Below are positions 4,069 through 50,208 of a stretch of 58,493 nucleotides of DNA, in pieces; within the stretch, counting starts at the first letter, position 1; each line of letters begins with the position of its first letter. The stretch is from IMG/VR virus record IMGVR_UViG_3300044695_005296, positions 1-58,493 of that record; one strand, given 5' to 3'. Position numbers and translations under genes: made by a program. A model generated the notes under the pieces. It worked only from the letters and a program-made list of their open reading frames with translations, made no database searches and was not told the DNA's origin. This stretch comes from a virus.

Positions 4069-4387
4069 TGTTCCTGCTTACGATGTCTTGCTGGCTGACG
4101 GCTGGGAGGACTGCATCATTGGCTTAGGGTGGCAATTTAATAAGCCGCTTATTGTTTACAGCAAGAACAAGATTCTGGCAAAGCTTGTTAATGAGTTTGC
4201 TGCGGATGCCCGCGACAACAAGGAGTTTGACGACAACGACGTCTACCGTGGGGACCGAGACTTTTTTGCTGAGGCAGAGGAATACTTTTCGTTTAACATC
4301 CAAGGCGCTTGGGTGGGCGAGTCAACCCCAGTCTTTGTTGACGAAGATGCCAACACCCCCGAAGCCATTAACGAGCAGTTGGCATGA
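4052..4387 (+). CDS. Hypothetical acidic protein, 111 aa
   Basis: ATG at 4052 with AAAGGAGGG directly upstream, the strongest ribosome-binding site in this gene run. The product is strongly acidic (DARDNKEFDDNDVYRGDRD) and begins with a likely beta-rich segment (ILLADGWEDCIIGLGW is the approximate pattern, read as DVLLADGWEDC). No family recognised. It overlaps the following protease gene as ATGA. Acidity could indicate DNA mimicry or simply a soluble accessory protein; nothing decides between them. Confidence 0.6.
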   Translation: MNEKSSVPAYDVLLADGWEDCIIGLGWQFNKPLIVYSKNKILAKLVNEFAADARDNKEFDDNDVYRGDRDFFAEAEEYFSFNIQGAWVGESTPVFVDEDANTPEAINEQLA

Positions 4388-25366: not shown

Positions 25367-28300
25367 CAACTTGGCCTCATGAAGCCTGCCGCACGGAGGG
25401 TGCGTACCTGTGCCGAACTTACCTTCTCGGCAAGTTTATCAATATCTGCGGCATCCGACACAACAGGGTTGTTAATGGTGACGGACGCATTGATTGTCGC
25501 GCCTCCGCCAGCCATTCGCAAGTCCCCTGGAGCCTGCAACGCTTGCAGGCCAGTATTTGGCAACATGTAGCCACTGCTGTCAGGGATCATAAGCTCTGGC
25601 CCACGCTCACCAACAAGGTACGGTGTGTACTGCTTGATTGGCCCACCGAAGGCTCGCGCAACTGGCTCCGTTGACTTTCCGCCAACCATCGTTGAGCCAG
25701 TGCCGCCCTTAACAGGATTCCAGTTTTTTGGCATGACCTTTGACCATTCCCTAAAACCAGTAAACCCTGGCAGCATTTCGGTATAGTTTTTAACCCACCT
25801 AGGTTCCATTCCCATAAGCGAGAACAGCTCTTCGCTTGACCTAAATTTGCCAATATTCTCTGGTCTCCACATAAATGGAGGAATAATCATTCTTTGGGCA
25901 GCGAGCATCTTGTCTTGTGCTTGCTCTTTTTCGGCAGCGGTTAAAAGCTCTGTGTCAAAAAACGCTCGGCCAAGATTAAACGGTATTCCATAATCTTGCT
26001 TATTTTGCTTAACCAGGTCTTCGTAAGAAGTTCCGCCTGGATCACCCTTACCAAAAATGCTTTCCCATCCCATTTGGCCAAGATAACCAATGAATGGCGC
26101 AACTTTTCCGACAACGTCGGCAATGCCACCAGGCAAATCCCAAAGCATGCCGCCCGTCTTGTTTCCAACGTGATACGCGCCCGTTGTTAGCGCAAGAGAA
26201 GCAAGCAGGGAACCACCCAGCGTTTCTGGGGCAACTGCTGCCAGTTTTACGGCCGTAATCGTTTCTGCCAACGCGCCAAATCCAACTCTAGCAATTGAAC
26301 GACCGAGAGGCTCTTTCAGCTTGTCAAGTTCTTCTTTAGTTGCTTCAGACAAAACAATTGGCGGACCAGGGTTGAAATCGCCAGAGGCAAGGCCCTCTGC
26401 AATTGTGTAATCCTTCAGGGTGTCATACTTTTTATTTGGATCAAAGCTATCAAAAATTCCCGTAATTGACTCAGTAAAATTAAGCGGGCCACTGCCCAAC
26501 TGTAGATTTTCGTTTAACGTGGCACGCGCTAGTTCAGATTCAAGAGTCCCGTTTCTTTCAAACTCTCTTTTCTTATTTACCCAATAAGCTTCACTCATTT
26601 CCTCAATTCGAATTTGCTCTAGGCGCTTTTCCCACCAATTTCCGTCTTTCTCTTGCGCCTCGTAAAGGTCTGTTGCCCACCCAAAAGAGCTAAGTCCAAT
26701 AGAACCCTTCTTCCAGAATGGGTACATTTTTCGTTCTGCTTTTCGCAGCAGGTTAGAGTGCTTAAAGAAATCTTCAAGTATGCCACGGCCTTTTCCGCCC
26801 ACGCCCTCTGGGTAGAATTTGGCGCCCCTGCTCTGCGGAGAAACGTTTGGATCTCCAACAGTTTTTACAATTCCGAGTTCGTTAGGTTGCAAATGCGGCA
26901 GCAACCTGCCTGGCTGCAGCAGCAAATCGGCAAAAGGAGTTCCCTTAATGAAAGGAAGCTTTGCAAGTTGGGCAAACCAGCCATACTTGTATTTCCAACC
27001 AGTTCCGCCCCTTACAACCGCACCAACTTCACCACCGTGATTTGGTCCTGGCTTTAGCTGCATTCTTACTGGTCCGCCAGCAGCTTGTGTTACCTCGTCG
27101 CCAAATTGTCCGCCTGGAACCTCGTCAAGAAGCCTGGTCTCTCCTCCTTCACCTGGCCCAAATGGCGCAAAGATTTGCGTTCTTGCACCAGGAATTGGAC
27201 GAGATTTTCCTGTTTTTGGATCAACCGTATACGGGAATTCAACGTTTGCCGCAATATCCCCAAGGCTGTCAAGCAGCATTGGGTAAAGCTTCCAGTTGAA
27301 AGGAATTGTGGCGGTATCTGGGTCAATTATCGGCGGCTCTGGTGGATCAATTACTGTTGTAACCTTTTCACAATAGTAGCCGCCCTCGCTCCAAACCTTA
27401 ATATACCCAGGTGGGCAATCCCACGTTGGCGGCTCTGGCGGAATTGGTGGCTCTGGGGTAATTGGATCGTCCATTGGGATAGGCCCACGGCCCCTACCAA
27501 CGTACCCGCCCGCTGCCCGACCCATGACTGGGCTCCAGCCCATTCGTCCGCCACCGCGAATCTTGCTTGCTACATAGCGAGCGTAATTCTTTGGATAGCG
27601 ACGCATCATTTCGTTCTTCTGCGCTTTTGTGTTATTTGGGTTAGCCATAAACTCGTTGAAAGAGTTTTGCTGGAAGCCCATAGGGTCGCCAACAAAGCCC
27701 AAGCTTCTCTGGAAGCTATCTGTTGGGCTCCAGAACGGATCGTCTTTCCCTACGGGTCCGACATATCCGCCGCCAGCTCGACCAGTTACACCAACCAGAC
27801 CGCCGTAGTATCGTCCCTGCTTGCCCGCCTTAAGCGCGCCAGAAGAGGACTGCATGCTACTTGGAAGCTGGTGGTTTGGCGTGACGTAGCCGCCACCATT
27901 TTGGAACATGGTGAGCATTTCTGGCCCACGCTCCCCAACAATGTATTGACCAGCGCCAACAGGTCCGCCGGCCGCCATTGGCTGCCAGTTCCATGCAGTG
28001 CCGCTCCATACCCAGTCACCGTTTGTTGCATACGGTGGCTTATATGTTGGCTTAGGCGGCTTTGTGACCGTTCCTGAGCCAGTAGATGGGGCAAAGCCTT
28101 CCCCGCCCGTTCTGGCAATCGTTGGAAGATCGCCAAACTTCTTATAAATCGCGTCAAATTGTGCGTACAAACCATCAAATATTTCGTTGAACTGTGAGCG
28201 CTGGATGAATTCATCATAGCCATCGAAAGGCATATTTTGTAGTTTTACCGCAAAATCTCCAAGGTTATCAATAACGCCCGCTGCTTCTTTCGCTGCTTGG

Positions 28301-31300
28301 GTGCCTTTGTTTTCTATCGCAAATCCTGTAAGTCCCGCTTGCGCCCTGGTGACCACACCCTTTAGGCGATCCCGCTCTGCCAGGACTTTCTTTTTGCTAA
28401 TCTTGTCAAGACCTTTTTCTACGCGCTCTTGCTGGGCAACTATTGCATCAACGTTTGCCTCTGCGGCAGCAGCTGCCATTGCGGCCCTAACGACATCTGC
28501 CATGGTGGTGGAAATAATGTCGCCAAGTTCCTGGAATCGCGTAGCAAATGCGGTGCCCATAATGTCTGCCAAGGCCTCGCCCTGGAATTGACCCGTTGCA
28601 AGAATAGATTCAATTGGCAGTCCGGCGTCGCCAAACATTGCGTAGAATTCTTCCTGGGCATCGGCCGCCTTGATCTTTCCTTCTTGAATATCCTTAAGGA
28701 GCTTCTGCGCTCGTTCCTGAAGCCTCCTAGCCCGCTCTTGCTGGTCCGCCCCAAGGGTTTGTTCTTTTTCTTGATAATATGTTGAGACCTGCTGATATTG
28801 AACGCTGTTTTTTGCTTGCTCAATTGACGTCTCCATAGACGACAGCTGATAATCCGCCTCTTCTTCTTGTAGCTTTTTGGCGGCCTCTCGTGCGGCAATA
28901 GCGGCCTCGATTGGATCCTTTTGTGCGTCAAACAGGCCAAGGGTTGCGCGCGCTGCGTTTTCCTGAGCGTCGTTTAATGCATTAAGCTTTTCCTGCTCAG
29001 CACGCTGCTCTTTCATTGCAGTGTACTGTTCTTCCAAAACACCAAGCCGCATAATTTCGCCGTTGTGCAACGCGTCAACGTTGTAGATGGCGTCTTCTTG
29101 CTCGGCCTTCAACTGCGCGGTTTCTTCCGCGAATGTTTTATTAAGAAGCTCCATTGCCCTTGAAAGGAATTGATCAAATGCAGTTGCAAATGGATCAAAG
29201 ATCTTGGCAAGCGCCTTGGAAAGCTTGTCTAGGTTCTTTTGCGCGTCGTCTAGGCTTTCATTGAGAAGCTTAAGCGAATCACTTGTGGAGAAGAGCGCCT
29301 CGTCTGGCGTGCCCTCTTTATTAAATTCTCCCGTGAACGCCATTCCCTTTCCGCCCAAGCCGAATTTACTAAAAATCATTTCGTCTATTTGCGCTTGGCC
29401 AAAGTTCTCTGCAAGATATGCAGCCGGGTCAATTATCGCTGCTGGGAGTGTCGAGGTTGGGAGGCGGTAACCGCCAGCGTAATACATACCCTTTTCGCCA
29501 GTGACCGCGCCACTTGACATCCCCGCCCCCGCCGCGAGCTCTGTAATGAGAGAAGTCCCGTCGTCCCTAGACATGATGCCCATAGATACCAAGGCATAAA
29601 GCTTGTCGGCCATTTCACTGCCGATTCTTGCTGCAGCATTAGTGTTTGTAGCCTGATTGAATGCGACCATTTGCGAATCAAACGGGCGCATTGCCTCTCT
29701 ACTCAGGGCGCCAGACTGATATGCCGCAACTTCTTTTTCTACAGTTGCCTTTAAGTAGCCTGCTGTTTTTCCAGCTTTTGTCGGGGTGTAAATTGAAACG
29801 CCGGTTTCCCCTTCAAGGTTGTTTGCGGTGTACATTCCAGAAGCAACCAGCTCGTCCATTTCGGACGCTGATTTCTTTATGGTTTCTATCTGATCGTCGA
29901 TTACCTGCTTAGTGCTATAAGAAGCCTGTCCGGTAAGCGGGTCTTTCTTAATTTCCTTAACTGCAAGCCCACTGTCCTTCCAGGTCTTGGCAACATCTTG
30001 CATCTGCTTGCGGTCATTAGCACGACTTTCTTCGTAAGACATAACGGCAGCTTTGTTAGCAGAATTTACTGCTTCATTTGCAAGTACAAGACCTCCCAAT
30101 AGTGTGCCGAGGCCCATCATGCCGCCGCCCTTGCCAAAGAAGCCGCCTACTTTTCCAAGAATCCCCGAAACTCCGCCCATTGGCGCTATAGCTAGAGCAA
30201 CCTGGGAAGCAGTCTGCAAAACTGCCGCAAAGCCAATAAGTCCTTGTGACGCTTGCGCAAGTCCATCAATCTGCATACCAAACGCAGACGTAATTGCCTG
30301 CACGGCCATTCCGAGGCCACCAAGGGTCATGGCAGCCTTGGATGCCATGCCGGTCATTTCGGCAAAGGCCTCGGTACCGCCACCCATTAGTTGAATGTCG
30401 TCAATCGTTGAAGCGGCCGCCACAACAGCAGCTTCTATTTTTTCTTTTGCGGTTACCGGAAGATTTCGGTCTCTTTCCGGTCGACGATTTATAATGTCTT
30501 GCAAAGCGCGAGCTTTATTAATCTCGTAGGCAAGCCCCGTTGGGGAACCAGCCAATCCCTGTAGCCCCTCGACGCCTTGGGCAGCTACCCGTTGCGCCGG
30601 AGTCATGTATTCTTCGTCAATTGGGAGAGGGTTTAATCCCTGCTCTTTCCTTGCGTTGTTCTCCCTATGTTGTTCAGCCCTTCGCTCATCGCGCATTTTT
30701 CTGTATTCGTCAATGTTTAAACCAGATTCAAGAGCCAAAAGCTTTTCATCAGATTCGTATTTATCTAAAAGAATTGACCTGCCGCTCTTTGTAATCTGAG
30801 GATCTGCAATAGAGCCAGAGAGAAGGCCTGCCTTCAGCAATTGAACTGTTTTTGCGTGAGTCCTTTGGGCCAAGGCGAGCTCTTCCGCCGAGGCCGCCTC
30901 GCCAAGGGCTCGATATCTGGTGACTGGCTTCTGAACGGCCATGCCATCTGGGCGAACCTCGCCAGTGATCTCATATCCGGTGTACGGGATTGGCGCTCCA
31001 GCGTATATCCCTGTTGCGTGTTCCTTAAAGTAGCTTGGCGCGGCCCCCTGGCCCGCAAAATCTCCAGGCTTAAAGCCCGTAGTTTGACTAATTCCAATCC
31101 CGCGAGGCTCCATCGCCGATACCGTTTTGGGCTCCATCATTGGCTCGCCTGTTTCCGGATTGGACAAAGGCATTCCAGTTGCTGGGTCTATAACGGGAAC
31201 CATTACTTCTTTTGTTGGCCCAAGAATGCCGTATCTAGAGGCTCCGGTTCGACCGTATGAGCTCATTTCCACAGCAGCAACCTGCATATTTTGCTGCAAG

Positions 31301-34300
31301 CCTGCAAGCAAACCCGATACGCCGTTAGTGAGAATGGCCATACCTTCGATTGCTGCCTTCTTTACAACAAACGCGCCCATCAAGGATCCGATAAGCGGAG
31401 CAAGTTTTTCCAGAACTCCGGCCATTGCACCAAGCCCTGCGGCTATGCTTGAAATTAGCGGAAGGGCTGCCTTTAGGGCAATTACCAATCCCCCGCCAAT
31501 AATCTGTGCCGCAGCCGCGCCAAGCGCTTTAATTGCAGGGATTAGTGCCTCGGCAATATCTGGCCCAATTTCCATAAGCGGCGCAGCCGCCTGATCAACA
31601 GTGTCTGCAAAGCCAAGGAAGTTTGTTTCGTATGCGTTACGCAGAGCGCCAAGAGCCGCAATTGCAAGAGTGATTGTTGCGACTAGCGGGTTTGTGCTTA
31701 CCGCAGTCATCAGTGCCTTGATTGCCAAGGAGGCAACGACCGCTGCTCGGACTAGGTTATTAGAGAGCAAGTCCCCGATAGTTGCAATGCCGCTGCGCAA
31801 GAAATCTATTGCACTTCCCGTTTCTGATCCGCCGAATACCTTGGCAAACAAGTTACCAAAATACAGCATTGAATTAGCAATTACCTTCATTGATGCAGGA
31901 ATTGCCTCTCTTAGCGTATTCGCAAATCCTTGCAGGCTTTGTCCAATCTTTACAAATATCCCGTATGTTCCCTTTTGCTGCAACAATTCTGAGAAGCGCA
32001 CAAGCAAGTCACGGATGGCGTTATAAAGAGGGCCAGTCATAACCGCAACAAGCGATTGCGACATATCCGAAATGGTGCTCATGGCACCGGTCATCGTCTT
32101 AGAGAGGCGCTCCATTCCGCCGCCGTACTTCTCGCCAAGCCCCTCAATAATTGCCCCTGAGGCAGCCTTTCCTGAAATTCTTCCTGCGGTTGTTAGCCGA
32201 CGGATTGCTTCAATAGGGTTTGCATACAGGTCATTAAGAATTCTTCTTTGCTCATTAGTCATCTTGTCGCCAGTTGCTTCAATTTCTTGAATCAAAGCCT
32301 CTGACAAGATTTCGTAACCAGCAATACCGGCGTTAGCTAGCTGCATCATGTCGTTTTGATACACGCGACCAGCTGATCGCATCTGGCCCAAGGCGTACGT
32401 AATGCGCATGATGCGCTCGTCGCCACCACCAAGAGCCGCAACGGCGTCACCGATGTCCTTGATATAGCCGACTAGTTGCCCGGATTCATCTCTTTGGATA
32501 ACGTCACCAATGTTGAATCCGAACGCTTGCATTCGGACAGCCGCTTCCTGCAGCTGCGTGAAGTAGAACGGCGTAATGTTGGCGAACTCTTTAAGTCGGT
32601 CGATCATGCCGGTAGCACGACCCTCAGCAACTCCCATAGAGTCGCCTGCGTTATAGAACAACGTCGAGAACCCAACCTTTGCGTCTTCAAGCGCCTGGTT
32701 GAACTGGATAAAGCCTGAAGAAAGGTGGCTAATAGATCGGTAAATAGCGTTTGCTGCGTTCTGCGTAAGAACGAATGCAACAGCCAGTTTTGCCGTATCC
32801 TTAAAGGTGCTGATTAATCCGCTGCCGCTGCTTGTTGCAGCGTCTAGCGCCTGGCTAAAGTCAAGCGATCCCTCAGATGCTCGCATAACGGCATCGTCAA
32901 AGTCTTGCATGATCCCGACCATTGGCCGAGTCGCCATAAAGGCATTTTTCATTCCAGAGGCCATGTCGCCAATTTTGCTAAGCCCAGGGAACGTATTCAT
33001 TCCTTGCATGACGTTGTCGAGATCTGAGAAGCCTTGCCCGCCAAATGCAAATGGCATGCTTGTTGCGCCAGCGTCCCCGCCAATCAGCTCCCTGTAATTG
33101 CTATCAAATATTGCCTTGCTGATAGATTCGGCAAGATCGGTTGATAGTGGGTCAAAGTATGGCTGCACTGCTGTTGATCCAGAAACAACTGGGCCAACAG
33201 GTCCGCCACGTCTCCCTCGCTTTGTTGCAGGAACCCTAGTTCCTGGCTGCGCGCCAAGGAGAGGATGGTCTGGTCTGTACTCTCGTACAAATGGGAGAAG
33301 CTCTGGGAACTGCTCTGCAAGTCCGGCAATTGCCGACGAGGCCAAGCTTGTTCTTGCCAGTTCTGTTCCGGCAAGCGGTCTGTCTGGAAGACCGGCCATC
33401 CTGCGTACTTGTCCCCTGTAAATCTGATTTTCTTTTCCGCCGCCAACAACTCCGGTGAGAAGAAGCTCAGAAATTGTAGAAAGAAGGTTTTGGCCCGCTG
33501 CGGAAACTGCAGCAACCCTGCCTGCTGGCTCTGGAACAAAACCAGGACCAGTGCTTGGTGGTGCCGCAGGTCCAGCCGGCTTCTTCTTTCCCCCCTTACG
33601 CTTAGCGCCACCTGCTGCCTCTACGAGTGTGGCAAGCTGCTCTGGATCATCTGCGTCGCTACCTACAATTCCGTGTGGAACCGTCGGACTTGCAGCAACG
33701 CCCAGCTTATCCGTAAGCATTGCCGTAAGCGCTGGTATGTTTTTTGCTCTGCCTAAAGTGTCAAGAACAACAGCGGCGTCAAGGATTCTTTCTGGCCTAA
33801 TTGACTCAAAGACCTTGCTTCGCTCGCTGGCTGGAGTTGCCTTAAGCGCACCTTCAAGTGCTCTGGCAAACATTGCGCCAAGGTCCTTAGGGTTGACGCC
33901 GCCCGCAGCGGCAGCGCCAGTAAGCTGGCCAGACATATTCCTTCTCAGTCGAGCAGCAAATTCAGCAACTGGCTTAAGCGCCGTTCCAAAATGTTGCGAA
34001 AGATCAAAGGCTCTAAGCAAACCGCCCTGATAGGGATTTGCGCCACCGGCAATTCCAGGAAGGATTGAGCCAATGTCCGTAATTCCGCCTGGGCTGCCGG
34101 CTTTTCTTGCTCCGGCATTCATCTGCCGAGTAGAAAGAGCCAAGCTGGCTTCTGTCTCTCCGGGTTGCAATATCTGCGTTGATTGCGCAAGCAGTTCTGC
34201 GTACTGGCTTAGGCCCGCACCACGGGATGCTTCCAGCATCCTTACCTGTGGGCCAAAGTGCCCAGGAACGTTGATATGCATACCTTGTGCATTTGGGTCA

Positions 34301-37300
34301 ATGTCAGCTGCCGTTTTTTGGTCAACATATGCTGGCTCATACCCAGCTTTTTCCTTAGGGCTTAGGGCCTTGTACTTAGAGGCCGCAATTGCCCCCTTTG
34401 GCAAATCAAAATAGCTAAAGCCTTCAAGATTGTTAGCATCTCCAAGTGGTATGGTCTTTCCGCCGACCTTGCTTCCTTTTGGAACAAACATGTCTTCGCC
34501 AGAAATTCCAGAGAATACTCGGTACTGCGAAGGCACCGGGACGCCAATCTTCTTATATACTTCCCGCTCAATGCGGGCGCGCTCTGCTGGATCGGTTACG
34601 CCTTTTACGCGATCCGCAGTTTCCAGTCTTGCATTGTCAACTTTTGCGTGAGTAAACTCGTGCGCAAGCGTAGTCAGCGCGCCGCCAAGCGTAACGTTGA
34701 CTGGATCTTGCCTCCTGCCGCCCAGGTCCATATCGACAGTTCCCGTGCCGCCCTTGCTTACTGGCGAGTAAGACGCCCAAGCTCCCTGGGTCGCAATAGG
34801 ATTTCCAAATTGAAGATCTATACCGCCAGGAACCCCTGGAGGTGCAAACTTTTGAGCAAAGTCTGCAAGGATATTTGCCAAACCACCAACTGCTTTTGGA
34901 TCATTGCCAAACTGAGTAAGGTGCGAAGCAAGAGTTGCCGATCCGGCAAGTCTTAGGCCAGGTGGGATTGGAGCCCCACCAAGTCGCGTAAGATTTGATG
35001 GTCCGTCTCCGTATTGAACGGTGCTTATTGAAGGAAGCCTTACCGCCCCTGGTCCGCTTGGCTTCTTCTTTTGCAACGCTGGGTTTGCGGCAATCTGCGC
35101 AATGTCTGGCGCATAGGTTGAAGGAACCTGACCAAGCATGCTAAACAGCACCTTGCGAAGAGGGATACCCTTCAGGTCGCCGCTCTTAAATGCTGCGGTG
35201 CCCGTGTCTTCGATATCCTTAAGGATGCCGCTGAACATGCCCATGATGGACTTGCGTGCCTTTGGTGCAATGCCGCGCAGGGCTTTCTGCATTGATCCGC
35301 CAGCAAACTCTCCCTGGCCCGTAGCGGCTTCAAGGATGGTCTTTTGGAACGACTCAATACTCTGCCTGAACAGGCTTGGGTTCATCTTTTGGCCAGCAAG
35401 AGATACCTTCAGGTTCTTGATGGCGGTAAGGGTTACCTGCTCAAAGGCGGTCTGCAGGGCTGTGTACGGGGTGCCAGTAGCAGCTCCACCGCTGCGCTTG
35501 CTGTATTCGGCAAAGGGGTTTGTCAGGCCGTTCATACTGCCACCCCCTGATCTTCGTGATAGTTCCCGACCGTCCGGCCGGGCTGCGCCCCGCGATTCAG
35601 CCATGCGACTCCTAAACGCTTCACGTGCGCGTCTGAAGATAGCATCGACTGTTGCGAGTGCTTCCTGCTCACTATATCCCCCTGCTCGCAATGCTTCAAG
35701 CAATTGCGGCTCTATAACTTTTCGCCGCGTCATGATGCCCGCAAGGGTAGCGGCTTCTTCCCTTGCGAGTTTTGTTTGAGTGTCCCGGAACTTTCCGGGG
35801 ATTCCAATTGGCACATCGCTGGCTGGGCGATATGGCTGTTGTCCAATCCTGCCGGTGCCCGGTGGGCTCAGGGTCAGGTCGTGATCAATGGCGGTCACGC
35901 GATAATTTCCAGGAGAGCCTACGCCGCCCTTCGGGTCGGCTAAATTGAGGAGGTAGTTAAGTCCGTGTCGGTCAAATGTCTGCCCAAGATGATCAAGGAT
36001 CTGCATGCGCCTTCCGCCCCTGCTTGCAAGCCACGGCTTATCGCGAAGGGCTGGATCATCTGAGCGCGGGCCTAGGGGCTGGGAGAAGCGACCGATAATC
36101 TCGTCGTCTTCCCATACATCAACCATCTTTGACGGAGGTGCGTTGCGCTTGTTGACAAAGTCAATTGCGGTTTCCCCTGGGGCCATTGGCTGAATTGCCA
36201 TTCTCCTGCCACCAATGCTGCGCTCCAGAATTGTTGGGGTGTCCACCCCGAGAAGCCCAGCAAGGATCTCCATTGCCTTGTTTGGGAATTTACCCTCCAT
36301 CGGCTGCGCAAGGACATTTCTTACTTCTCCAGTAAGAGTTTTCAAAGCAAGGATTTGTTTGCCAGCCCCGCCAGACCAGTGGCCGATGCCGTGCGAGCCC
36401 ATGCCGGTAATGTCTCCGCCCAGCAAGTCCTGCAGCGTCATCCCATAGGTTTGTCCACCAGTAATCTGCTGCATGATGTTTGGCCTGCCCCTACCAAAGA
36501 GACCGCCAAGCATTCCACCAATGCCGCCAGAGCGCTTGCTGTATTCAGCCCATTGGTTGTTTCTTGCCAAAATGCGCGCAACTCGATAGCCAAGTTTATT
36601 TTTTGCGTCTACATCGGGATGCCCGCCAAGGGCAGCGTCTGGCGCCCCCCATGCGCGACTGCTCCATTTTGCAAACATTTGAGCCATCCACTCGGTCCCA
36701 ACATGCATTTGCCCTCTAATAGAGCCATATCCGCCAATTTTCCAAAGCTCTTGCATTGCTTCATTAATATTTTTATATTGCTTTGGAAGGACGCTGGCAA
36801 GCGGACCCTGCTTCCCCATCAGCATCATTTCGCCAATTTTTCGCATTTGGAGTTGCTCAGTAACATCCTCTACCATAAATCCTGTTTTGTTACTTCCATA
36901 CATCGTTTTTTGTTTCTTACTGCCAGGATGGAAAAAGCCACTGTAAGCGCCGCCCTGCCTGTTGCTTTTGCCGTCTATTTCTCCAGGCAAATAAAAATCT
37001 TCTGGCTTTAATCTTCCGCCAGTAGTCTCTTCAACATTTGCAAGCGCGGCCATCTGCGCCATGCCCTTTTTGTAGTCATAATGGTAGCCCCTGGCGCCGC
37101 GACCCATGCCATCTCTTCTGTCTCCGTATACAAACTCATCATATGGCTGATACCCGTAAAAACTAATACCTTTTTGTTTCATTGCTTCTTGATATTTGTC
37201 AACAGCCATTACGTGACCGAGCTCATGGGCAAAGATGCCGTGTATGCTCTGCGCCCTGCCAGCAAGGCCATCCTTGCTCGCAAAACGAGGATTCTTTGAC

Positions 37301-40300
37301 TTGTAGTAATCAAAGTATGCATTCTTGTCGTGTGCCGAATCTGGCGTAAGCAAATAATCCATCAGGTTTATCGGTCCAGAACCGACTGATGCCGTGCCAG
37401 TAGCGCCCCCATGCAATTTTTCGTATGACATCCTGATTCCGGTACTTCTTGGACCAGCAAGCTCTTGCATTTGTTCTGGATACTTCTTGTGGAAGCTTTC
37501 TACAGCTGCAATAATTTCTTGCAGTCGCCCTCGGTGAGCATCAGCCGGAACATTGTCAATTCGCAAGCCGCTAGGTGTCACTACTTGGTAATACGGAATG
37601 CCTCGGTGTCCGCTTGGCCTTGGGATTGGCTGTCCTTTACGGGGTCCAGCTACATACGTTTCGTTCTGGGGGTAAAATCTTGTTCCGCGCGTAAATGAAC
37701 CAAGCAAATTTTCTTCGCTTAATCTAAAAGCGGTTTGCCCTAGGTAATTTGGGTCTCCCGGACCCATCCTTCTAACAAGTTTTTCTTGCATTGGGTACGA
37801 TGTCTTGCCAGACCTTCGCGCAAACTCCATTGGGCTGTAGGCAATGCCCTGCTCTGCAAGGCGGGCTTCTACTCTCTTGATCTCTGCACGGATTTTTCCG
37901 TACATGTCAACAACCTTGTCTCCACCCATATGCATAAAGCTGCTTCTAGCGCCTAGGTCGGTAAATTCAAACCCGAGCGCCTCGTACAGGCCCATACCTC
38001 TTTCACTGGCTTTTAAGCTCAGTCCACCAGGGCTGCCTGGTCGCATGTTGAGGCGGGGGAGATCTTCTGGGGACACACCGTATTTAGCCTCTAGGGCGCC
38101 GGGGTATCTTCTTCGAGCCTCCATAGTTGCCCGAGCGTGCCGACGCAACTCATACGCCATAAGGCTTGTGCCGACACCTGGCACCCCAAGGCCGGACAGG
38201 CCAGCAAGTTTGCCTTGCTCGCCAGTGCCTGGCATTCTATGGGTCATTGCGCCAACAACAAGATTTCTTAGGCCAGCAGCGTCTTCCATGCCTGGGACAT
38301 AAAACCTATTTGGCGCGGTAGCAATAAACCCGCCCGTAAGCCCAATGCGGCGATTGCCGCTTTGGCCGGCCCTCCTATCTCTTCGCGCACCAGGCGTACC
38401 CGCGCTCACCTCTCTAAACGCATCAAAACCACTCATTTCGTCAAGGGCAGAACCAACCATATCCGCACGCGCCCTTCGATCAGTGTCCGTTGCATCCATC
38501 AAAGCTGAGCTTGTGAGCACTGAGCCCGGAGCCAATGTGGCAATTGATCCCATTCCTGATCGCTGGCGTCTAAACAGTTGGTACGCCCGAGCTGCAGCCA
38601 TTTGATCTGCTCGTGAAGTAATTCTTCTAACGTTTCCATCGTTCTGAACTGAAACGCCCATAGCCTGAAGCTGAGCATTAATCAACCGCTCAGGGTCTGG
38701 GGCAATTTCCCGAACCCGCATACCGGCGTTGTGGGATGCCACAAGAGCTTCCGCAAAAATCTGCTCGGGGCTTCTGCCAGCAAGGTTTTGAGGAATTATA
38801 GGCCTAGATCCCCTGCTTGCTCGACCAGGAATGAACTCTTTTCCTGTAACCAAAGACGTCCTAGTTTCATCTTCAAAAGTCACTGGTCGAGCTTTTTGGT
38901 CCCTCTGTTTTCTTTGCAGCATTTCGCCAAGCAGCCGAATCGGTCTTGGGAGCTCAGCAAAATCCCCACTAGGAAGATCTTGTGGAAGCATGACCCCGCG
39001 TCCAGTTGCCCTGGTTCTTGCAGCAAGTTTTCTCTGGGCCCCAGAACGGCGCGACATTTGCAGCATTTGATAATACTGTCCGGCATCGGTCGATCCCGAA
39101 GATGCCTCTGCCTCTCTTGTAATTGCAGCAGCCTCTAGCCGTGTTCGAAGGGTCTCCATGTACTTTTTAGTGTCTCTATATGAATATCCAGCAGACAAGA
39201 AAGATTCTTCAACAATCTTCATTGACCTCTTGCCGCCAAGAATTCCCCTTAGAGTTTTTGCTTCTCGCGCAGATGCGTCTTGTTCTTGCTTGTTTAATTT
39301 TACTCTTGAAAGTGTTCCGCCACCTTTATTCCACGGCAGCAGTGCGCTCAATGACTGAGGAATCTCTCGCGGCTTATAGCGCGCAGAGAATGAGGAGAAT
39401 TGCGGCGTATTGTTTAACTGCCTATCAAGGTCTGAGATGGGCCTATCAAGGCCGCGCATGCTAAATAAATGCTCATTATCAATGCCGACGATTCTTTTTC
39501 TTCCGCTTCGACCCTTGCCGACCATGATGTTGCTGCCGTGTCGATCTGACTGGCCAAGGATCTGATCAAGGAGCATGATGCGTCGCATGTCTCTTGTTGA
39601 GCCAAGGTGCCTAGTTGCTTGCGTTTCAATTTCATTGTTAAATACAGGATTTCCAGGAAGCGACTTGCCCATTGTTTCAAAATTTTCAAGCCAAGGAATC
39701 ATCCATGCATTGCGGCTAAGTGGCCGGTGTTGACGAACTTCTGTGTGTTGGAATTTCCCAGAAGCGATTCTGCGGGTTGCGCCAATGTTTGTTCTAGCCG
39801 AAGAGCCAACTTGCGGTAGTCTTCCGCCAGTTGCCAGTTGCTGCTCTAATGGAGTTAGCCTTCTCCTAACGACAGCGGGCGTTGGAGCCCCAAGCATCCC
39901 GCCAAGAACCTCATATACTTTTTCTGCCATTGGGCTATATGGAGAAAGTTTCTTTCTTCTAGTTTTTCTGTCCCCCTGCCCAAGGTTTCTCCCGACCTCT
40001 CGGCCATCTCGTTGTCCTTTGAGCCCCCTGTCGTTCTCGGGGATCATGGCGATAGCTGTGCCTCGCACTCGATCTCGCCCCGTGCCCATGGAAACGGTGG
40101 TGGATAGTCTTTTTGTGTTTAGGCGTTGGGCGCCAATCTCTTGGCCGAACGACATGTCGCCTCTGCGGATTGCCTCCAGGATTCGACGATCTGGCACAAA
40201 TCCAAAGGCTGTCTCGGCAACGGAGCGGGAGCCAGAGCGTCGTGACATTTCGCGCGGTCCGCCCTTGCCCTCCTTGCCGCCGTAGCCACGACCGTCAACA

Positions 40301-41646
40301 ACTGCACCCTTTTTGCGCAACGTAGAAATAAAGTTTTGTAGCGCTCGGCGGTCTGATGCAGAAGATGGATAAAACACTGGGGCGCCAGATGGGGAAACAA
40401 GTTTTTTATGATTTTTCCCTTTTTCAATTCTCCAGCCTTGCCCGAGAACCTGACCAACTATTCGGTCAATATCCTTGTTGCCGCCACTACCGCCCCTGCC
40501 GGATTTCTTGGAAAACTCCATGAGGCCGCGACCCGGAACGTGGACCGACATTGGCTTTCCCGGTGAAGTTCTTGGGAAGAACGTGCTGCTGCGACGTCTG
40601 GCTCTTCTTGCTGTCTCAATCATTCTTTGCAAATAAGCAGGCATGCGTCGCACGTCTTCTCTCATGCGACCTTGTGGGGCTCGAAGAGCTGATTGAAGAA
40701 GGCTTAGATTTTCTTGCTCTATTGCCGCCTCAAAAAGAGCAAGATCTCCTTGCTGCACATCGTAGCGACCCGAGCGCCTCTTTGGCTTTGGCGGACCAAA
40801 GCGATTGCCACGCCAGGCAAAATTTCTAAGGTCTAACGGCTCAGATGGATATGAGACGTCGCCAGTTTCTGATGCAACAAGCCTTGAAATGAAACGACCA
40901 AGATCACGCGAAGAAAGACGGGAAAGAAGCTGTGATCTTGCCTCTCTTCTAATAAAGTCTGGGTCTGTGTCGTAAGATGGGCCGGTGTCGCCCGTGCGGC
41001 CCTCAATGGCAATGCCTGCCTTGCGCATACCAGAGCGCTTAGACAGCTCCAGGCCAAGCGCGGCCCTTGATATGCCCGCTATGCTGGGTATAGAGCGGGC
41101 AGCCGCCCCGGAATCGTCTAGTGAGGAGCGGGCGCCGCGCGTTCCTGCGGCTCCCGTACCTGCCCCACCTCGACCGAAGGAACCGCTACCAGAGCGACCA
41201 GCATTTCTAAATGCCATCGCTCCGGTGCGGTTTTGCGACATGGCAGCACGCGCCATCGCGTCTGCGGTTCGCATTGCCTGGCGCTCTTGTGCCGCCAAGG
41301 CATTGGTAACTCGCTGGATGCCAGAAACGGCGTTATTGGGCTGTGCCCCAATATTAAATACTCGGCTTAGGCTTGCAGCAGAGGCGTTTGCCTGCGTCTG
41401 CAGCTTTCTAAGTGCGGGTATCGCGTCCGCGTCAACAGCGTTTCTGAATTGCTTAAGGGAGAGAGAGGCTTGGCGCAAACCTCGGAAAGACGAGCCGACC
41501 TTGCTTCCCGCTACCTCAAACTGATTAAGACCCTGTGTAAGCAGTCGGATATCTGCAAGGATGGCCTGTGTTCCAGCCTTGAATTGGCTGGTATCAAGAC
41601 CAATGGATATCTGTCCAGTACTGGACTGATCTGCCGAATCTGCCAC
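25366..41646 (-). CDS. Tape measure protein with embedded enzyme-like modules, 5426 aa
   Basis: GTG at 41646 follows GAGGAAAA; its stop overlaps the tail-tip start. The first ~200 residues resemble tape measure N-termini (ISIGLDTSQFKAGTQ). Residues ~200-2500 look like separate modules: HicA-like (~390-450), PI3/4-kinase-like 1 (~560-735), GNAT-like (~1110-1240), zincin 1 (HELGH at 1474-1478), kinase-like 2 (~1755-1935), zincin 2 (HEFTH at 2329-2333). Short S-K/R-R-S-G motifs lie at the module borders. From ~2880 it is a classical tape measure (TPFYFTQLQEAAVRMQAFG near 3030), with hydrophobic stretches near 3315, 3410, 3830 and 5150 and a coiled coil near 4170-4330. Two VGERGPE motifs sit at ~4570 and ~5345. 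In the order: chaperone G/GT, this, tail-tip. Confidence 0.9.
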   Translation of the reverse strand: MADSADQSSTGQISIGLDTSQFKAGTQAILADIRLLTQGLNQFEVAGSKVGSSFRGLRQASLSLKQFRNAVDADAIPALRKLQTQANASAASLSRVFNIGAQPNNAVSGIQRVTNALAAQERQAMRTADAMARAAMSQNRTGAMAFRNAGRSGSGSFGRGGAGTGAAGTRGARSSLDDSGAAARSIPSIAGISRAALGLELSKRSGMRKAGIAIEGRTGDTGPSYDTDPDFIRREARSQLLSRLSSRDLGRFISRLVASETGDVSYPSEPLDLRNFAWRGNRFGPPKPKRRSGRYDVQQGDLALFEAAIEQENLSLLQSALRAPQGRMREDVRRMPAYLQRMIETARRARRRSSTFFPRTSPGKPMSVHVPGRGLMEFSKKSGRGGSGGNKDIDRIVGQVLGQGWRIEKGKNHKKLVSPSGAPVFYPSSASDRRALQNFISTLRKKGAVVDGRGYGGKEGKGGPREMSRRSGSRSVAETAFGFVPDRRILEAIRRGDMSFGQEIGAQRLNTKRLSTTVSMGTGRDRVRGTAIAMIPENDRGLKGQRDGREVGRNLGQGDRKTRRKKLSPYSPMAEKVYEVLGGMLGAPTPAVVRRRLTPLEQQLATGGRLPQVGSSARTNIGATRRIASGKFQHTEVRQHRPLSRNAWMIPWLENFETMGKSLPGNPVFNNEIETQATRHLGSTRDMRRIMLLDQILGQSDRHGSNIMVGKGRSGRKRIVGIDNEHLFSMRGLDRPISDLDRQLNNTPQFSSFSARYKPREIPQSLSALLPWNKGGGTLSRVKLNKQEQDASAREAKTLRGILGGKRSMKIVEESFLSAGYSYRDTKKYMETLRTRLEAAAITREAEASSGSTDAGQYYQMLQMSRRSGAQRKLAARTRATGRGVMLPQDLPSGDFAELPRPIRLLGEMLQRKQRDQKARPVTFEDETRTSLVTGKEFIPGRASRGSRPIIPQNLAGRSPEQIFAEALVASHNAGMRVREIAPDPERLINAQLQAMGVSVQNDGNVRRITSRADQMAAARAYQLFRRQRSGMGSIATLAPGSVLTSSALMDATDTDRRARADMVGSALDEMSGFDAFREVSAGTPGARRDRRAGQSGNRRIGLTGGFIATAPNRFYVPGMEDAAGLRNLVVGAMTHRMPGTGEQGKLAGLSGLGVPGVGTSLMAYELRRHARATMEARRRYPGALEAKYGVSPEDLPRLNMRPGSPGGLSLKASERGMGLYEALGFEFTDLGARSSFMHMGGDKVVDMYGKIRAEIKRVEARLAEQGIAYSPMEFARRSGKTSYPMQEKLVRRMGPGDPNYLGQTAFRLSEENLLGSFTRGTRFYPQNETYVAGPRKGQPIPRPSGHRGIPYYQVVTPSGLRIDNVPADAHRGRLQEIIAAVESFHKKYPEQMQELAGPRSTGIRMSYEKLHGGATGTASVGSGPINLMDYLLTPDSAHDKNAYFDYYKSKNPRFASKDGLAGRAQSIHGIFAHELGHVMAVDKYQEAMKQKGISFYGYQPYDEFVYGDRRDGMGRGARGYHYDYKKGMAQMAALANVEETTGGRLKPEDFYLPGEIDGKSNRQGGAYSGFFHPGSKKQKTMYGSNKTGFMVEDVTEQLQMRKIGEMMLMGKQGPLASVLPKQYKNINEAMQELWKIGGYGSIRGQMHVGTEWMAQMFAKWSSRAWGAPDAALGGHPDVDAKNKLGYRVARILARNNQWAEYSKRSGGIGGMLGGLFGRGRPNIMQQITGGQTYGMTLQDLLGGDITGMGSHGIGHWSGGAGKQILALKTLTGEVRNVLAQPMEGKFPNKAMEILAGLLGVDTPTILERSIGGRRMAIQPMAPGETAIDFVNKRNAPPSKMVDVWEDDEIIGRFSQPLGPRSDDPALRDKPWLASRGGRRMQILDHLGQTFDRHGLNYLLNLADPKGGVGSPGNYRVTAIDHDLTLSPPGTGRIGQQPYRPASDVPIGIPGKFRDTQTKLAREEAATLAGIMTRRKVIEPQLLEALRAGGYSEQEALATVDAIFRRAREAFRSRMAESRGAARPDGRELSRRSGGGSMNGLTNPFAEYSKRSGGAATGTPYTALQTAFEQVTLTAIKNLKVSLAGQKMNPSLFRQSIESFQKTILEAATGQGEFAGGSMQKALRGIAPKARKSIMGMFSGILKDIEDTGTAAFKSGDLKGIPLRKVLFSMLGQVPSTYAPDIAQIAANPALQKKKPSGPGAVRLPSISTVQYGDGPSNLTRLGGAPIPPGLRLAGSATLASHLTQFGNDPKAVGGLANILADFAQKFAPPGVPGGIDLQFGNPIATQGAWASYSPVSKGGTGTVDMDLGGRRQDPVNVTLGGALTTLAHEFTHAKVDNARLETADRVKGVTDPAERARIEREVYKKIGVPVPSQYRVFSGISGEDMFVPKGSKVGGKTIPLGDANNLEGFSYFDLPKGAIAASKYKALSPKEKAGYEPAYVDQKTAADIDPNAQGMHINVPGHFGPQVRMLEASRGAGLSQYAELLAQSTQILQPGETEASLALSTRQMNAGARKAGSPGGITDIGSILPGIAGGANPYQGGLLRAFDLSQHFGTALKPVAEFAARLRRNMSGQLTGAAAAGGVNPKDLGAMFARALEGALKATPASERSKVFESIRPERILDAAVVLDTLGRAKNIPALTAMLTDKLGVAASPTVPHGIVGSDADDPEQLATLVEAAGGAKRKGGKKKPAGPAAPPSTGPGFVPEPAGRVAAVSAAGQNLLSTISELLLTGVVGGGKENQIYRGQVRRMAGLPDRPLAGTELARTSLASSAIAGLAEQFPELLPFVREYRPDHPLLGAQPGTRVPATKRGRRGGPVGPVVSGSTAVQPYFDPLSTDLAESISKAIFDSNYRELIGGDAGATSMPFAFGGQGFSDLDNVMQGMNTFPGLSKIGDMASGMKNAFMATRPMVGIMQDFDDAVMRASEGSLDFSQALDAATSSGSGLISTFKDTAKLAVAFVLTQNAANAIYRSISHLSSGFIQFNQALEDAKVGFSTLFYNAGDSMGVAEGRATGMIDRLKEFANITPFYFTQLQEAAVRMQAFGFNIGDVIQRDESGQLVGYIKDIGDAVAALGGGDERIMRITYALGQMRSAGRVYQNDMMQLANAGIAGYEILSEALIQEIEATGDKMTNEQRRILNDLYANPIEAIRRLTTAGRISGKAASGAIIEGLGEKYGGGMERLSKTMTGAMSTISDMSQSLVAVMTGPLYNAIRDLLVRFSELLQQKGTYGIFVKIGQSLQGFANTLREAIPASMKVIANSMLYFGNLFAKVFGGSETGSAIDFLRSGIATIGDLLSNNLVRAAVVASLAIKALMTAVSTNPLVATITLAIAALGALRNAYETNFLGFADTVDQAAAPLMEIGPDIAEALIPAIKALGAAAAQIIGGGLVIALKAALPLISSIAAGLGAMAGVLEKLAPLIGSLMGAFVVKKAAIEGMAILTNGVSGLLAGLQQNMQVAAVEMSSYGRTGASRYGILGPTKEVMVPVIDPATGMPLSNPETGEPMMEPKTVSAMEPRGIGISQTTGFKPGDFAGQGAAPSYFKEHATGIYAGAPIPYTGYEITGEVRPDGMAVQKPVTRYRALGEAASAEELALAQRTHAKTVQLLKAGLLSGSIADPQITKSGRSILLDKYESDEKLLALESGLNIDEYRKMRDERRAEQHRENNARKEQGLNPLPIDEEYMTPAQRVAAQGVEGLQGLAGSPTGLAYEINKARALQDIINRRPERDRNLPVTAKEKIEAAVVAAASTIDDIQLMGGGTEAFAEMTGMASKAAMTLGGLGMAVQAITSAFGMQIDGLAQASQGLIGFAAVLQTASQVALAIAPMGGVSGILGKVGGFFGKGGGMMGLGTLLGGLVLANEAVNSANKAAVMSYEESRANDRKQMQDVAKTWKDSGLAVKEIKKDPLTGQASYSTKQVIDDQIETIKKSASEMDELVASGMYTANNLEGETGVSIYTPTKAGKTAGYLKATVEKEVAAYQSGALSREAMRPFDSQMVAFNQATNTNAAARIGSEMADKLYALVSMGIMSRDDGTSLITELAAGAGMSSGAVTGEKGMYYAGGYRLPTSTLPAAIIDPAAYLAENFGQAQIDEMIFSKFGLGGKGMAFTGEFNKEGTPDEALFSTSDSLKLLNESLDDAQKNLDKLSKALAKIFDPFATAFDQFLSRAMELLNKTFAEETAQLKAEQEDAIYNVDALHNGEIMRLGVLEEQYTAMKEQRAEQEKLNALNDAQENAARATLGLFDAQKDPIEAAIAAREAAKKLQEEEADYQLSSMETSIEQAKNSVQYQQVSTYYQEKEQTLGADQQERARRLQERAQKLLKDIQEGKIKAADAQEEFYAMFGDAGLPIESILATGQFQGEALADIMGTAFATRFQELGDIISTTMADVVRAAMAAAAAEANVDAIVAQQERVEKGLDKISKKKVLAERDRLKGVVTRAQAGLTGFAIENKGTQAAKEAAGVIDNLGDFAVKLQNMPFDGYDEFIQRSQFNEIFDGLYAQFDAIYKKFGDLPTIARTGGEGFAPSTGSGTVTKPPKPTYKPPYATNGDWVWSGTAWNWQPMAAGGPVGAGQYIVGERGPEMLTMFQNGGGYVTPNHQLPSSMQSSSGALKAGKQGRYYGGLVGVTGRAGGGYVGPVGKDDPFWSPTDSFQRSLGFVGDPMGFQQNSFNEFMANPNNTKAQKNEMMRRYPKNYARYVASKIRGGGRMGWSPVMGRAAGGYVGRGRGPIPMDDPITPEPPIPPEPPTWDCPPGYIKVWSEGGYYCEKVTTVIDPPEPPIIDPDTATIPFNWKLYPMLLDSLGDIAANVEFPYTVDPKTGKSRPIPGARTQIFAPFGPGEGGETRLLDEVPGGQFGDEVTQAAGGPVRMQLKPGPNHGGEVGAVVRGGTGWKYKYGWFAQLAKLPFIKGTPFADLLLQPGRLLPHLQPNELGIVKTVGDPNVSPQSRGAKFYPEGVGGKGRGILEDFFKHSNLLRKAERKMYPFWKKGSIGLSSFGWATDLYEAQEKDGNWWEKRLEQIRIEEMSEAYWVNKKREFERNGTLESELARATLNENLQLGSGPLNFTESITGIFDSFDPNKKYDTLKDYTIAEGLASGDFNPGPPIVLSEATKEELDKLKEPLGRSIARVGFGALAETITAVKLAAVAPETLGGSLLASLALTTGAYHVGNKTGGMLWDLPGGIADVVGKVAPFIGYLGQMGWESIFGKGDPGGTSYEDLVKQNKQDYGIPFNLGRAFFDTELLTAAEKEQAQDKMLAAQRMIIPPFMWRPENIGKFRSSEELFSLMGMEPRWVKNYTEMLPGFTGFREWSKVMPKNWNPVKGGTGSTMVGGKSTEPVARAFGGPIKQYTPYLVGERGPELMIPDSSGYMLPNTGLQALQAPGDLRMAGGGATINASVTINNPVVSDAADIDKLAEKVSSAQVRTLRAAGFMRPS
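25591..27939 (-). repeat. Duplicated VGERGPE segment near the tape measure C-terminus
   Basis: YIVGERGPEM at ~4570 and YLVGERGPEL at ~5345, each preceded by a Gly-Gly-Pro turn and followed by a GYxxPN pattern. The DNA is nearly identical over about 22 bases around the core, so the copies are recently duplicated or under conversion. Such motifs are common in tape measure C-termini. Confidence 0.7.
34177..34959 (-). other. Zincin metallopeptidase module 2 inside the tape measure
   Basis: Residues ~2230-2490. TLAHEFTHAKVD carries HExxH at 2329-2333. A candidate third ligand is the Glu of QYAELLAQS near 2483. The module lies between the repeats region and the ruler region. Different from zincin 1 in sequence around the motif. 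Confidence 0.55.
35842..36384 (-). other. PI3/4-kinase-like module 2 inside the tape measure
   Basis: Residues ~1755-1935. QILALKTLTGE offers ATP-binding Lys1769; NKAMEILAGLLGV the glutamate helix; ILDHLGQTFDRHGLNYLLN the DRHxxN loop (1892-1897); VTAIDHDLTL the metal-binding Asp1921. It has all the key residues and aligns by eye with copy 1, as if duplicated. Flanked by the recurring motif at 1703 and 2030. Confidence 0.6.
36667..37449 (-). other. Zincin metallopeptidase module 1 inside the tape measure
   Basis: Residues ~1400-1660. IFAHELGHVMAVD carries HExxH at 1474-1478. A likely third ligand is Glu1652 in GTEWMAQMFAKW, a helix pattern seen in phage polyvalent zincins and M34/M78-style relatives. 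Between them are Gly/Tyr-rich stretches. Flanked by the recurring motif at 1276 and 1703. Confidence 0.65.
37927..38319 (-). other. GNAT-like acetyltransferase module inside the tape measure
   Basis: Residues ~1110-1240. LSGLGVPGVGTSLMAYELRRHA has the look of GNAT motif A (strand, acetyl-CoA loop with G-x-G, helix), followed by GGLSLKASERGMGLYEALGFEF, the typical L-x-A-x...LYEALGF of motif B. No catalytic residue can be assigned. The substrate is unknown. Confidence 0.4.
39442..39969 (-). other. PI3/4-kinase-like module 1 inside the tape measure
   Basis: Residues ~560-735. MAEKVYEVLGGMLG and APTPAVV match the glutamate helix region; ILGQSDRHGSNIMVG gives the DRHxxN catalytic loop (701-706); VGIDNEHLF gives the metal-binding Asp723. 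This DRHxxN plus ID pattern is that of PI3/PI4-kinases and HipA-like kinases. The usual ATP-binding Lys is not obvious in this copy, so activity is less sure than for copy 2. Confidence 0.55.
40297..40479 (-). other. HicA-like module inside the tape measure
   Basis: Residues ~390-450 of the tape measure. Pattern: a helix (DIDRIVGQVLGQG), W-R-x-x-K-G, then NHKKLVSPSG with candidate catalytic His413, then VFYPSSASD and a final helix (ALQNFISTLRKKG). This is the order of the small HicA/YcfA-type RNA-binding toxins. It is flanked by the recurring S-K-K-S-G (379) and S-R-R-S-G (468) motifs. Moderate confidence: the fold is short and the similarity rests on pattern reading only. Confidence 0.45.
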
Positions 41647-41665: not shown

Positions 41666-41887
41666 CTAGGACGAGCCGAATCCCGGCTTACCGAATGTTG
41701 CCACTAACTGCTCAATGGAGTCAATGCTTGCTGTTCCTGCGCCCTTTTTATTTCCTTGGCTCTTGGAACGCTTCTTCATATCATCATCGCGCTTCTCAGC
41801 GTACTGAGAAAAGGCATTGAGCTGGGCAAGAGTTAAGTTGAAAAAATCACTGGGGGTAAAGCCAAAGCTGTCCGCGTAGGAAGCCAT
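41666..41887 (-). CDS. Tail assembly chaperone T part, 73 aa as separate frame
   Basis: This frame is continuous, without stop, from the -1 frameshift site at 41941-41947 in the preceding gene, so the main product is probably a 183-residue G-T fusion. The T part shows WSEIDWGSIM, then GFTPSDFFNLTLAQLNAF, the typical Trp and P-x-x-F-x-x-LT pattern of the chaperone C-terminus. The ATG at 41887 lacks a convincing ribosome-binding site. The protein loads the tape measure for tail tube assembly. Confidence 0.85.
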   Translation of the reverse strand: MASYADSFGFTPSDFFNLTLAQLNAFSQYAEKRDDDMKKRSKSQGNKKGAGTASIDSIEQLVATFGKPGFGSS

Positions 41888-41916: not shown

Positions 41917-42216
41917 CTAAGCCTTTGCCGCCTCCTCGCTTTTTCCCGCAGCGCCCTCAACCTCACCGCCAAGAAGACCGCTTGCGCGCATGACCTTATC
42001 GATCTCTTCTCGCATGGTGTCAAGGCTAAAGCGGTCGCCCACTTCGCGCTCGGTAAGCTGCGGCTCGTCCTTCTTCAGAACTAGCCAAAGGATATAGCGA
42101 ATAACGGTAAACTTGGTCAGGTCGATCTGATCAAGCGATCCGTATTTCTCCTCGATATCGGCGAGGTCGTTAAGGGTTAGAACCTTTGTGGGTCTAACCT
42201 GGGACAGGTTTGCCAT
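41917..42216 (-). CDS. Tail assembly chaperone G part, 99 aa
   Basis: ATG at 42216 after AGGAGTAAATC. Small helical protein (LNDLADIEEKYG, FTVIRYILWLVLKK) that ends in a Glu/Ala-rich tail. It has the size and position (between tail tube and tape measure) of the G protein of the lambda G/GT pair. The GGGAAAA heptamer at 41941-41947 lies in frame as G-GGA-AAA. Confidence 0.9.
   Translation of the reverse strand: MANLSQVRPTKVLTLNDLADIEEKYGSLDQIDLTKFTVIRYILWLVLKKDEPQLTEREVGDRFSLDTMREEIDKVMRASGLLGGEVEGAAGKSEEAAKA
41941..41947 (-). other. -1 programmed frameshift site GGGAAAA
   Basis: Canonical X-XXY-YYZ heptamer in the correct zero frame (G GGA AAA). After a -1 slip the frame stays open for 18 codons into the T gene, giving a 183-residue fusion. 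Same type as lambda's GGGAAAG. Confidence 0.8.
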
Positions 42217-50051: not shown

Positions 50052-50208
50052 GATTCCCCCTCTAAGGCCGACACAACTTGGCCAGCCGGTAGATAATACA
50101 CATGCTTTATCCTGTAACACAACGCGCTACAAATCTATACCTTTAGTATCTGCACGCAGTTGTGTGTCTAGTGTCATACCATGCTGGAAACATGATAACA
50201 TAGCCCCC
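50052..50208. other. Divergent intergenic region between protease and small zinc gene
   Basis: 157 bases. On the minus strand TTGTGT and TATTAT, 18 bases apart, form a candidate promoter for the head operon, followed by a leader with AGGGGG. On the plus strand TGA-TAACAT precedes the gene at 50209. No gene seen. Confidence 0.5.
50193..50201 (+). promoter_or_regulatory. Extended -10 promoter (TGA-TAACAT), leaderless
   Basis: The box ends seven bases before the ATG at 50209, and no ribosome-binding site precedes that ATG. It would drive the portal operon. Confidence 0.55.

What the first reader, a model, noticed from the sequence alone, without database searches (positions are those of the whole stretch)
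34177..41646. Tape measure protein that carries at least six enzyme-like modules
The N-terminal half of a 5,426-residue tape measure holds a HicA-like domain, two PI3/4-kinase-like domains, a GNAT-like domain and two HExxH zincins, before a normal ruler region begins near residue 2880. Known tape measures sometimes carry one cell-wall enzyme; a set of intracellular-type effectors in one tape measure is not something I know to be described. Since tape measures exit with the DNA, these could act in the host cell early in infection.
Basis: partly seen in the sequence, partly recalled or inferred. Interest (0 to 1): 0.92.

Follow-up and report, generated by a model that had tools for sequence, protein, structure and literature searches.

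The report
Phage tape measure carrying effector-like cassettes
In an uncultured group of tailed phages, the protein that sets tail length has gained about 2,700 extra residues made of exchangeable enzyme-like blocks joined by eight near-identical short linkers, which may let the phage deliver several early-acting proteins into the host in one strand and cut them apart.

Summary
The 5,426-residue tape measure ORF is real and not an assembly join: independent metagenome contigs encode the same architecture. A family of 76 related tape measures shows that the N-terminal blocks are an insertion, since compact relatives have none. Module calls vary in strength. The HicA-like fold is supported (HHalign 90%, AF2 fold). 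Kinase 1 is supported (Pfam PI3_PI4, E=1.8e-5) and kinase 2 is related to it. The two zincins rest on conserved HExxH motifs and weak M48 similarity. GNAT is not supported beyond a 12-residue motif. Two further modules are unassigned.

They are conserved at every position in all relatives, written with different codons, and absent from the ruler region. Divergent alleles of zincin module 1 break at these motifs. All modules are under purifying selection.

Best reading: a polyvalent-type effector array built into a tape measure, with linkers that are probably processing sites. Cleavage, virion presence, injection and catalysis are inferred. Polyvalent proteins (Iyer 2017) and the RNA polymerase fused to the P23-45 tape measure (2024) are close precedents, so this is a new variant rather than a new kind.

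The parts
25366..41646 (-). Tape measure ORF, 5,426 aa, GTG start, upstream AGGA
   Evidence: TMP_3 and PHROG tail families
41047..41646 (-). N-terminal tape-measure segment, residues 1-200; 92-97% identical in relatives and 66% in clade 2
41029..41043 (-). Linker motif 1, SKRSG, residues 202-206
40513..41028 (-). Unassigned module, residues 207-378
40498..40512 (-). Linker motif 2, SKKSG, residues 379-383
40246..40497 (-). HicA-like module, residues 384-467, His413
   Evidence: phrog_2089; HHalign 89.9%; AF2 alpha-beta-beta-beta-alpha
40231..40245 (-). Linker motif 3, SRRSG, residues 468-472
39055..40230 (-). PI3/4-kinase-like module 1, residues 473-864 (D701-R-H-x-x-N706, D723)
   Evidence: PF00454 E=1.8e-5; conservation
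39040..39054 (-). Linker motif 4, SRRSG, residues 865-869
37822..39039 (-).
37807..37821 (-). Linker motif 5, ARRSG, residues 1276-1280; 5' edge of allele swap
36541..37806 (-). Zincin-like module 1, residues 1281-1702 (H1474-E-L-G-H1478; conserved E1652 downstream); exists as divergent alleles
36526..36540 (-). Linker motif 6, SKRSG, residues 1703-1707; 3' edge of allele swap
35560..36525 (-). Kinase-like module 2, residues 1708-2029 (D1892-R-H-x-x-N1897, D1921)
35545..35559 (-). Linker motif 7, SRRSG, residues 2030-2034
35488..35502 (-). Linker motif 8, SKRSG, residues 2049-2053
34087..35487 (-). Zincin-like module 2, residues 2054-2520 (H2329-E-F-T-H2333; invariant HxNxxxHFxPQ downstream)
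33007..34086 (-). Unassigned, faster-evolving region, residues 2521-2880
25369..32874 (-). Tape-measure core and ruler, residues ~2925-5426, shared with compact tape measures

Best explanation
The N-terminal half of this tape measure is a cassette array of injected, host-directed modules of the polyvalent-protein type, inserted between the original N-terminal segment and the ruler. Each module is separated from the next by a short conserved dibasic linker. Most likely the whole protein is built into the tail, leaves it with the DNA, and is cut at the linkers, by one of its own zincin domains or by a host protease, to free a HicA-like RNA-binding domain or RNase, two kinase-like domains and other effectors that act early in infection. 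Shown by sequence: the insertion, the array, the linkers, selection at protein level, and exchange of a module between linkers. Inferred: virion location, injection, cleavage and catalytic activity.
For: Compact relatives of 1,500-1,900 aa lack the insert, while others carry inserts up to ~2,850 aa of different content. Eight copies of [FYLM][SAN][KR][KR]SG lie at the module edges; shuffles give a mean of 0.0 and a maximum of 1. All eight are kept in all relatives that cover them. Codons differ between copies, so selection is on the protein. The motif is absent from every other window ORF over 60 aa and from the ruler. Divergent zincin-1 alleles in L006 and L015 break at residues 1282 and 1699-1706, next to motifs 5 and 6. 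Ka/Ks is 0.05-0.30 for every module where it could be computed. Clade 2 has F-[AD]-[KR]-[KR]-G at the ends of four tandem repeats. DdrB-ParB, a polyvalent-protein domain, is in 8 of 26 relatives. Polyvalent proteins are proposed to be cut by their own zincins (PMC5512222), and P23-45 uses an RNA polymerase fused to its tape measure (PMC10770324).
Against: No cleavage, virion or activity data exist. Catalytic activity is unproven: no ATP-binding lysine was identified in either kinase-like module, the window's own HicA copy has a one-residue deletion next to the histidine, GNAT is unsupported, and AF2/Foldseek did not confirm the large modules. The major capsid protein has no such dibasic site, so the head protease is not an obvious processor. 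The secreted subtilase also occurs in relatives with compact tape measures, so it is not tied to the motif. Large insert-bearing relatives such as L016, L021 and L038 lack these linkers, so linkers are not needed for an insert to exist.
Confidence: 0.5

Rival explanations
1. The linkers are binding motifs or flexible tethers (for the tail-assembly chaperone, the tail tube lumen or a membrane) rather than cleavage sites. The modules are delivered as one uncut chain, as may be the case for the P23-45 tape-measure polymerase.
For: N4 virion RNA polymerase is packaged unprocessed despite a zincin (PMC5512222). Two small ORFs in the usual place of tail chaperones lie just upstream, 41666-41887 and 41917-42216. 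Motif 7 and motif 8 are only 19 residues apart, which is odd for a pair of cleavage sites.
Against: Motifs occur only at module edges and never in the 2,500-residue ruler, where chaperone or tube contacts would be expected.
Confidence: 0.25
2. The insert is cut off during assembly and the modules work in the producing cell as late proteins; only the ruler enters the tail.
For: Phage P1 DdrB is processed before packaging (PMC5512222). Globular domains of 30-45 kDa would not fit folded in a normal tail tube (general knowledge).
Against: The original N-terminal segment is kept upstream of the insert and is the most conserved part (92-97%), which is unexpected if it were cut away and lost.
Confidence: 0.15
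3. The motifs are borders for cassette exchange, kept because recombination between conserved edges swaps modules, with no role in the protein.
For: Zincin-1 alleles break at the motifs; recent exchange tracts in L005 and L008 end 34-57 residues outside them.
Against: Copies within one gene use different codons, so the DNA is not the conserved thing, and every copy is kept in every genome regardless of exchange.
Confidence: 0.05
4. The domain resemblances are mostly chance and the insert is an elongated structural spacer.
For: GNAT fails and AF2 is poor for most of the insert.
Against: HicA-like 89.9% and PI3/4-kinase 1.8e-5 are above chance. DRHxxN and HExxH residues are invariant between divergent copies.
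Confidence: 0.05

Closest known systems
Polyvalent proteins of phages and conjugative elements (Iyer et al. 2017, PMC5512222)
   Same: Several unrelated enzymatic domains in one polypeptide encoded among late phage genes; zincins, kinases, GNATs and DdrB-ParB are listed there; autoprocessing by zincins and cassette recombination were proposed.
   Different: Here the array sits inside the tape measure. The words 'tape', 'HicA' and 'PI3' do not occur in that paper; its kinases are of the serine/threonine/tyrosine type, here PI3/4-like. The word 'linker' does not occur there either; here repeated conserved linkers lie between the modules.
Tape-measure-fused virion RNA polymerase of Thermus phage P23-45 (PMC10770324)
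   Same: A giant tape measure (5,002 aa) whose N-terminal part is an intracellular enzyme used at the start of infection; also a metallopeptidase domain.
   Different: One polymerase there; here several unrelated modules in exchangeable order with conserved linkers and no polymerase found.
Sle1-type tape-measure-related effectors of actinobacterial contractile injection systems (PMC13277306)
   Same: Tape-measure-related protein carrying swappable functional domains.
   Different: A bacterial contractile system, not a phage; a single functional domain rather than an array.
Mycobacteriophage TM4 tape measure with peptidoglycan hydrolase motif (PMC1796659)
   Same: Enzyme-like motif inside a tape measure.
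   Different: Cell-wall enzyme, single motif.

Membership tests
Siphophage tape measure protein | TMP domain and long helical ruler encoded among tail genes | tested here: met
   PF20155 E=1.3e-10, PHROG tail length tape measure E=4.7e-16
Polyvalent proteins | Two or more unrelated enzymatic domains in one polypeptide of a phage or mobile element | tested here: met
   HicA-like and PI3/4-kinase-like supported, zincin-like by motif; in relatives also DdrB-ParB
Polyvalent proteins | Delivered into the host with the DNA | not testable with these tools
   inferred from tape measure identity only
HicA (dsRBD-fold mRNA interferase) | Fold and catalytic histidine | tested here: met
   HHalign 89.9%, AF2 alpha-beta-beta-beta-alpha, His aligned with GSH of HicA; in the window copy KGK-NH with a one-residue deletion; Pfam PF07927 not hit
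HicA (dsRBD-fold mRNA interferase) | Paired HicB antitoxin and mRNA cleavage | not tested
   no antitoxin was looked for; activity needs an assay
PI3/PI4-kinase superfamily | DRHxxN catalytic loop and metal-binding D | tested here: met
   D701-N706, D723; D1892-N1897, D1921; PF00454 E=1.8e-5 for module 1, below Pfam's cut-off
PI3/PI4-kinase superfamily | ATP-binding lysine in the N-lobe | tested here: inconclusive
   no confident lysine found; AF2 poor there
GNAT acetyltransferase | Acetyl-CoA-binding motif A and fold | tested here: not met
   HHalign 3%, 12 residues only, positive control 99.8%; AF2 strand and helix order is compatible but Foldseek gave no match
Zincin (gluzincin) peptidase | HExxH plus third zinc ligand | tested here: inconclusive
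   HExxH invariant; E1652 invariant in module 1; third ligand of module 2 unclear; M48 HHalign 35% and 18%

The most novel reading that the evidence does not exclude
A phage tape measure that is a true polyprotein: a ruler fused to a swappable array of injected effectors, cut apart at eight conserved K/R-K/R-S-G sites after delivery.
Probability: 0.35. Interest if true: 0.9.

Novelty: new variant of a known kind. Interest (0 to 1): 0.72.

Why it matters
If true, siphophages use the one protein that every tail must eject as a carrier for a set of early effectors, with built-in release sites and cassette exchange. That would explain giant tape measures whose N-terminal halves do not look like rulers, give a reason for tape measure length varying from about 1,500 to 5,600 residues among relatives, and offer a linker motif by which effector modules could be found in other uncultured phages. 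It makes the question of how folded enzymes travel through a narrow tail tube directly testable.

Tried and rejected
Assembly chimera: rejected, independent contigs share the architecture. Chance motif: rejected by shuffles and conservation. DNA-level repeat: rejected, codons differ. The phage subtilase as dedicated processor: not supported, it has a signal-like N-terminus and also occurs with compact tape measures. The head protease as processor: no dibasic site of this kind in the capsid protein. PDB profile searches of five modules: no meaningful hit. NCBIfam: nothing convincing. Foldseek on model 1: nothing below E=0.6; it was not run on model 2 because mean pLDDT was 37. GNAT: failed HHalign. 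Host search in 84,980 genomes: only one distant hit, in a MAG titled Dethiobacter alkaliphilus. INPHARED phages: no hit to the insert. Further IMG/VR scans with four insert modules or segments added no new genomes.

Full report
The window is a whole IMG/VR virus record of 58,493 bases, classed as linear. It encodes a tailed phage with a prohead protease, SU10-like capsid protein, portal, head-tail connectors, a terminase and tail proteins. The tape measure ORF runs from 41646 to 25366 on the minus strand, 5,426 residues, with an AGGA upstream of its GTG start. Its core matches Pfam TMP_3 and PHROG tape-measure families.

The N-terminal insert. A search with the core found 76 related tape measures in IMG/VR. 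In the compact ones (L018, L026-L030, L036, L047, L062; about 1,500-1,900 aa) fewer than 500 residues lie ahead of the core; in others, including the window, 1,200-2,850 residues do. The first 200 residues and the core are shared by the close relatives and by clade 2 (L009-L011, L013), so the modules are an insertion between them. Complete ORFs of the same order in L006 and L008 and long parts in L003, L004, L005, L014 and L015 exclude an assembly join.

The linkers. Eight copies of the motif [FYLM][SAN][KR][KR]SG lie at residues 202, 379, 468, 865, 1276, 1703, 2030 and 2049 of the window protein (positions are those of the [SA][KR][KR]SG part). They occur in no other window ORF over 60 aa and not in the ruler. 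Shuffled sequences give a mean of 0.0 copies and a maximum of 1. Every copy is kept in every relative that covers it. Within one gene the eight copies use different codons for the same residues, which points to selection on the protein. Clade 2 has a variant, F-[AD]-[KR]-[KR]-G, at the ends of four tandem repeats related to the module between motifs 4 and 5. Other insert-bearing relatives (for example L016, L021, L038) do not have it.

The modules. (a) 384-467: HicA-like. phrog_2089 E=3e-9; HHalign probability 89.9% against 14 genuine HicA proteins fetched for the purpose, with controls under 0.5%; AF2 gives alpha-beta-beta-beta-alpha at pLDDT 66-83. (b) 473-864: PI3/4-kinase-like, PF00454 E=1.8e-5, slightly under Pfam's cut-off, with DRHGSN and ID. 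(d) 1281-1702: HELGH and a distant conserved Glu; weak M48 similarity. (e) 1708-2029: kinase-like, HHalign 66% to (b). (f) 2054-2520: HEFTH with an invariant HxNxxxHFxPQ downstream, kept at 28% identity in clade 2. (g) 207-378 and 2521-2880: unassigned. AF2 with 9-16 sequences was too poor for the large modules.

Selection and exchange. Ka/Ks is 0.05-0.30 for every module in the pairs where it could be computed; zincin 1 in L006 and L015 is saturated at silent sites. Zincin module 1 is about 90% identical in L005, L008 and L004, 53% in L003 and 36-37% in L006, L014 and L015, while its neighbours stay near 80%. For L006 and L015 the change points are residue 1282 and residues 1699 and 1706, that is, at motifs 5 and 6. 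In L005 and L008 the low-divergence tract reaches 34-57 residues beyond the motifs, as expected for homologous exchange through conserved edges.

Mechanism. The best reading is an array of injected polyvalent-type modules carried by the tape measure and probably released at the linkers. The dibasic pair between domains and the presence of two zincin-like domains fit proteolytic release, as was proposed for polyvalent proteins. No processing enzyme is identified: the secreted subtilase (4384-5316) is present in records with and without the motif, and the capsid protein lacks such a site. Binding motifs, assembly-time removal and cassette borders remain possible.

Novelty. The library searched holds no description of such an array in a tape measure, but it lacks most subscription papers. 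Known precedents are polyvalent proteins, the P23-45 tape-measure RNA polymerase and tape-measure-related effectors of contractile systems. I file it as a new variant of a known kind.

Noticed in passing
4384-5316 (+): Subtilase (PF00082, E=5.6e-26) with a signal-like N-terminus; also in 8 of 29 related virus records, including some with compact tape measures.
   Followed up: partly
48468-50120 (-): Prohead protease S78 followed by an Hva1 Tudor domain and a long Ala/Glu/Pro-rich tail, likely a fused scaffold.
   Followed up: no
17432-25369 (-): A 2,645-residue ORF in the tail region without any PHROG match.
   Followed up: no
50858-52987 (+): The portal gene lies on the opposite strand to the capsid, protease and tail genes.
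   Followed up: no
43720-45003 (+): An exonuclease-family ORF (phrog_284), metallophosphatase-like by eye, on the opposite strand inside the tail gene block.
   Followed up: no
L016, L020, L021, L022, L031 and other relatives, tape measure N-terminal inserts: Inserts of different content; across 26 relatives scanned, 8 match DdrB-ParB, 8 match phrog_2089 (HicA-like) and 3 match PI3/4-kinase, suggesting a family-wide site for module gain.
   Followed up: partly
L010:3971-7723: Four tandem copies of the module between motifs 4 and 5 of the window protein, each ending in F-[AD]-[KR]-[KR]-G.
   Followed up: partly
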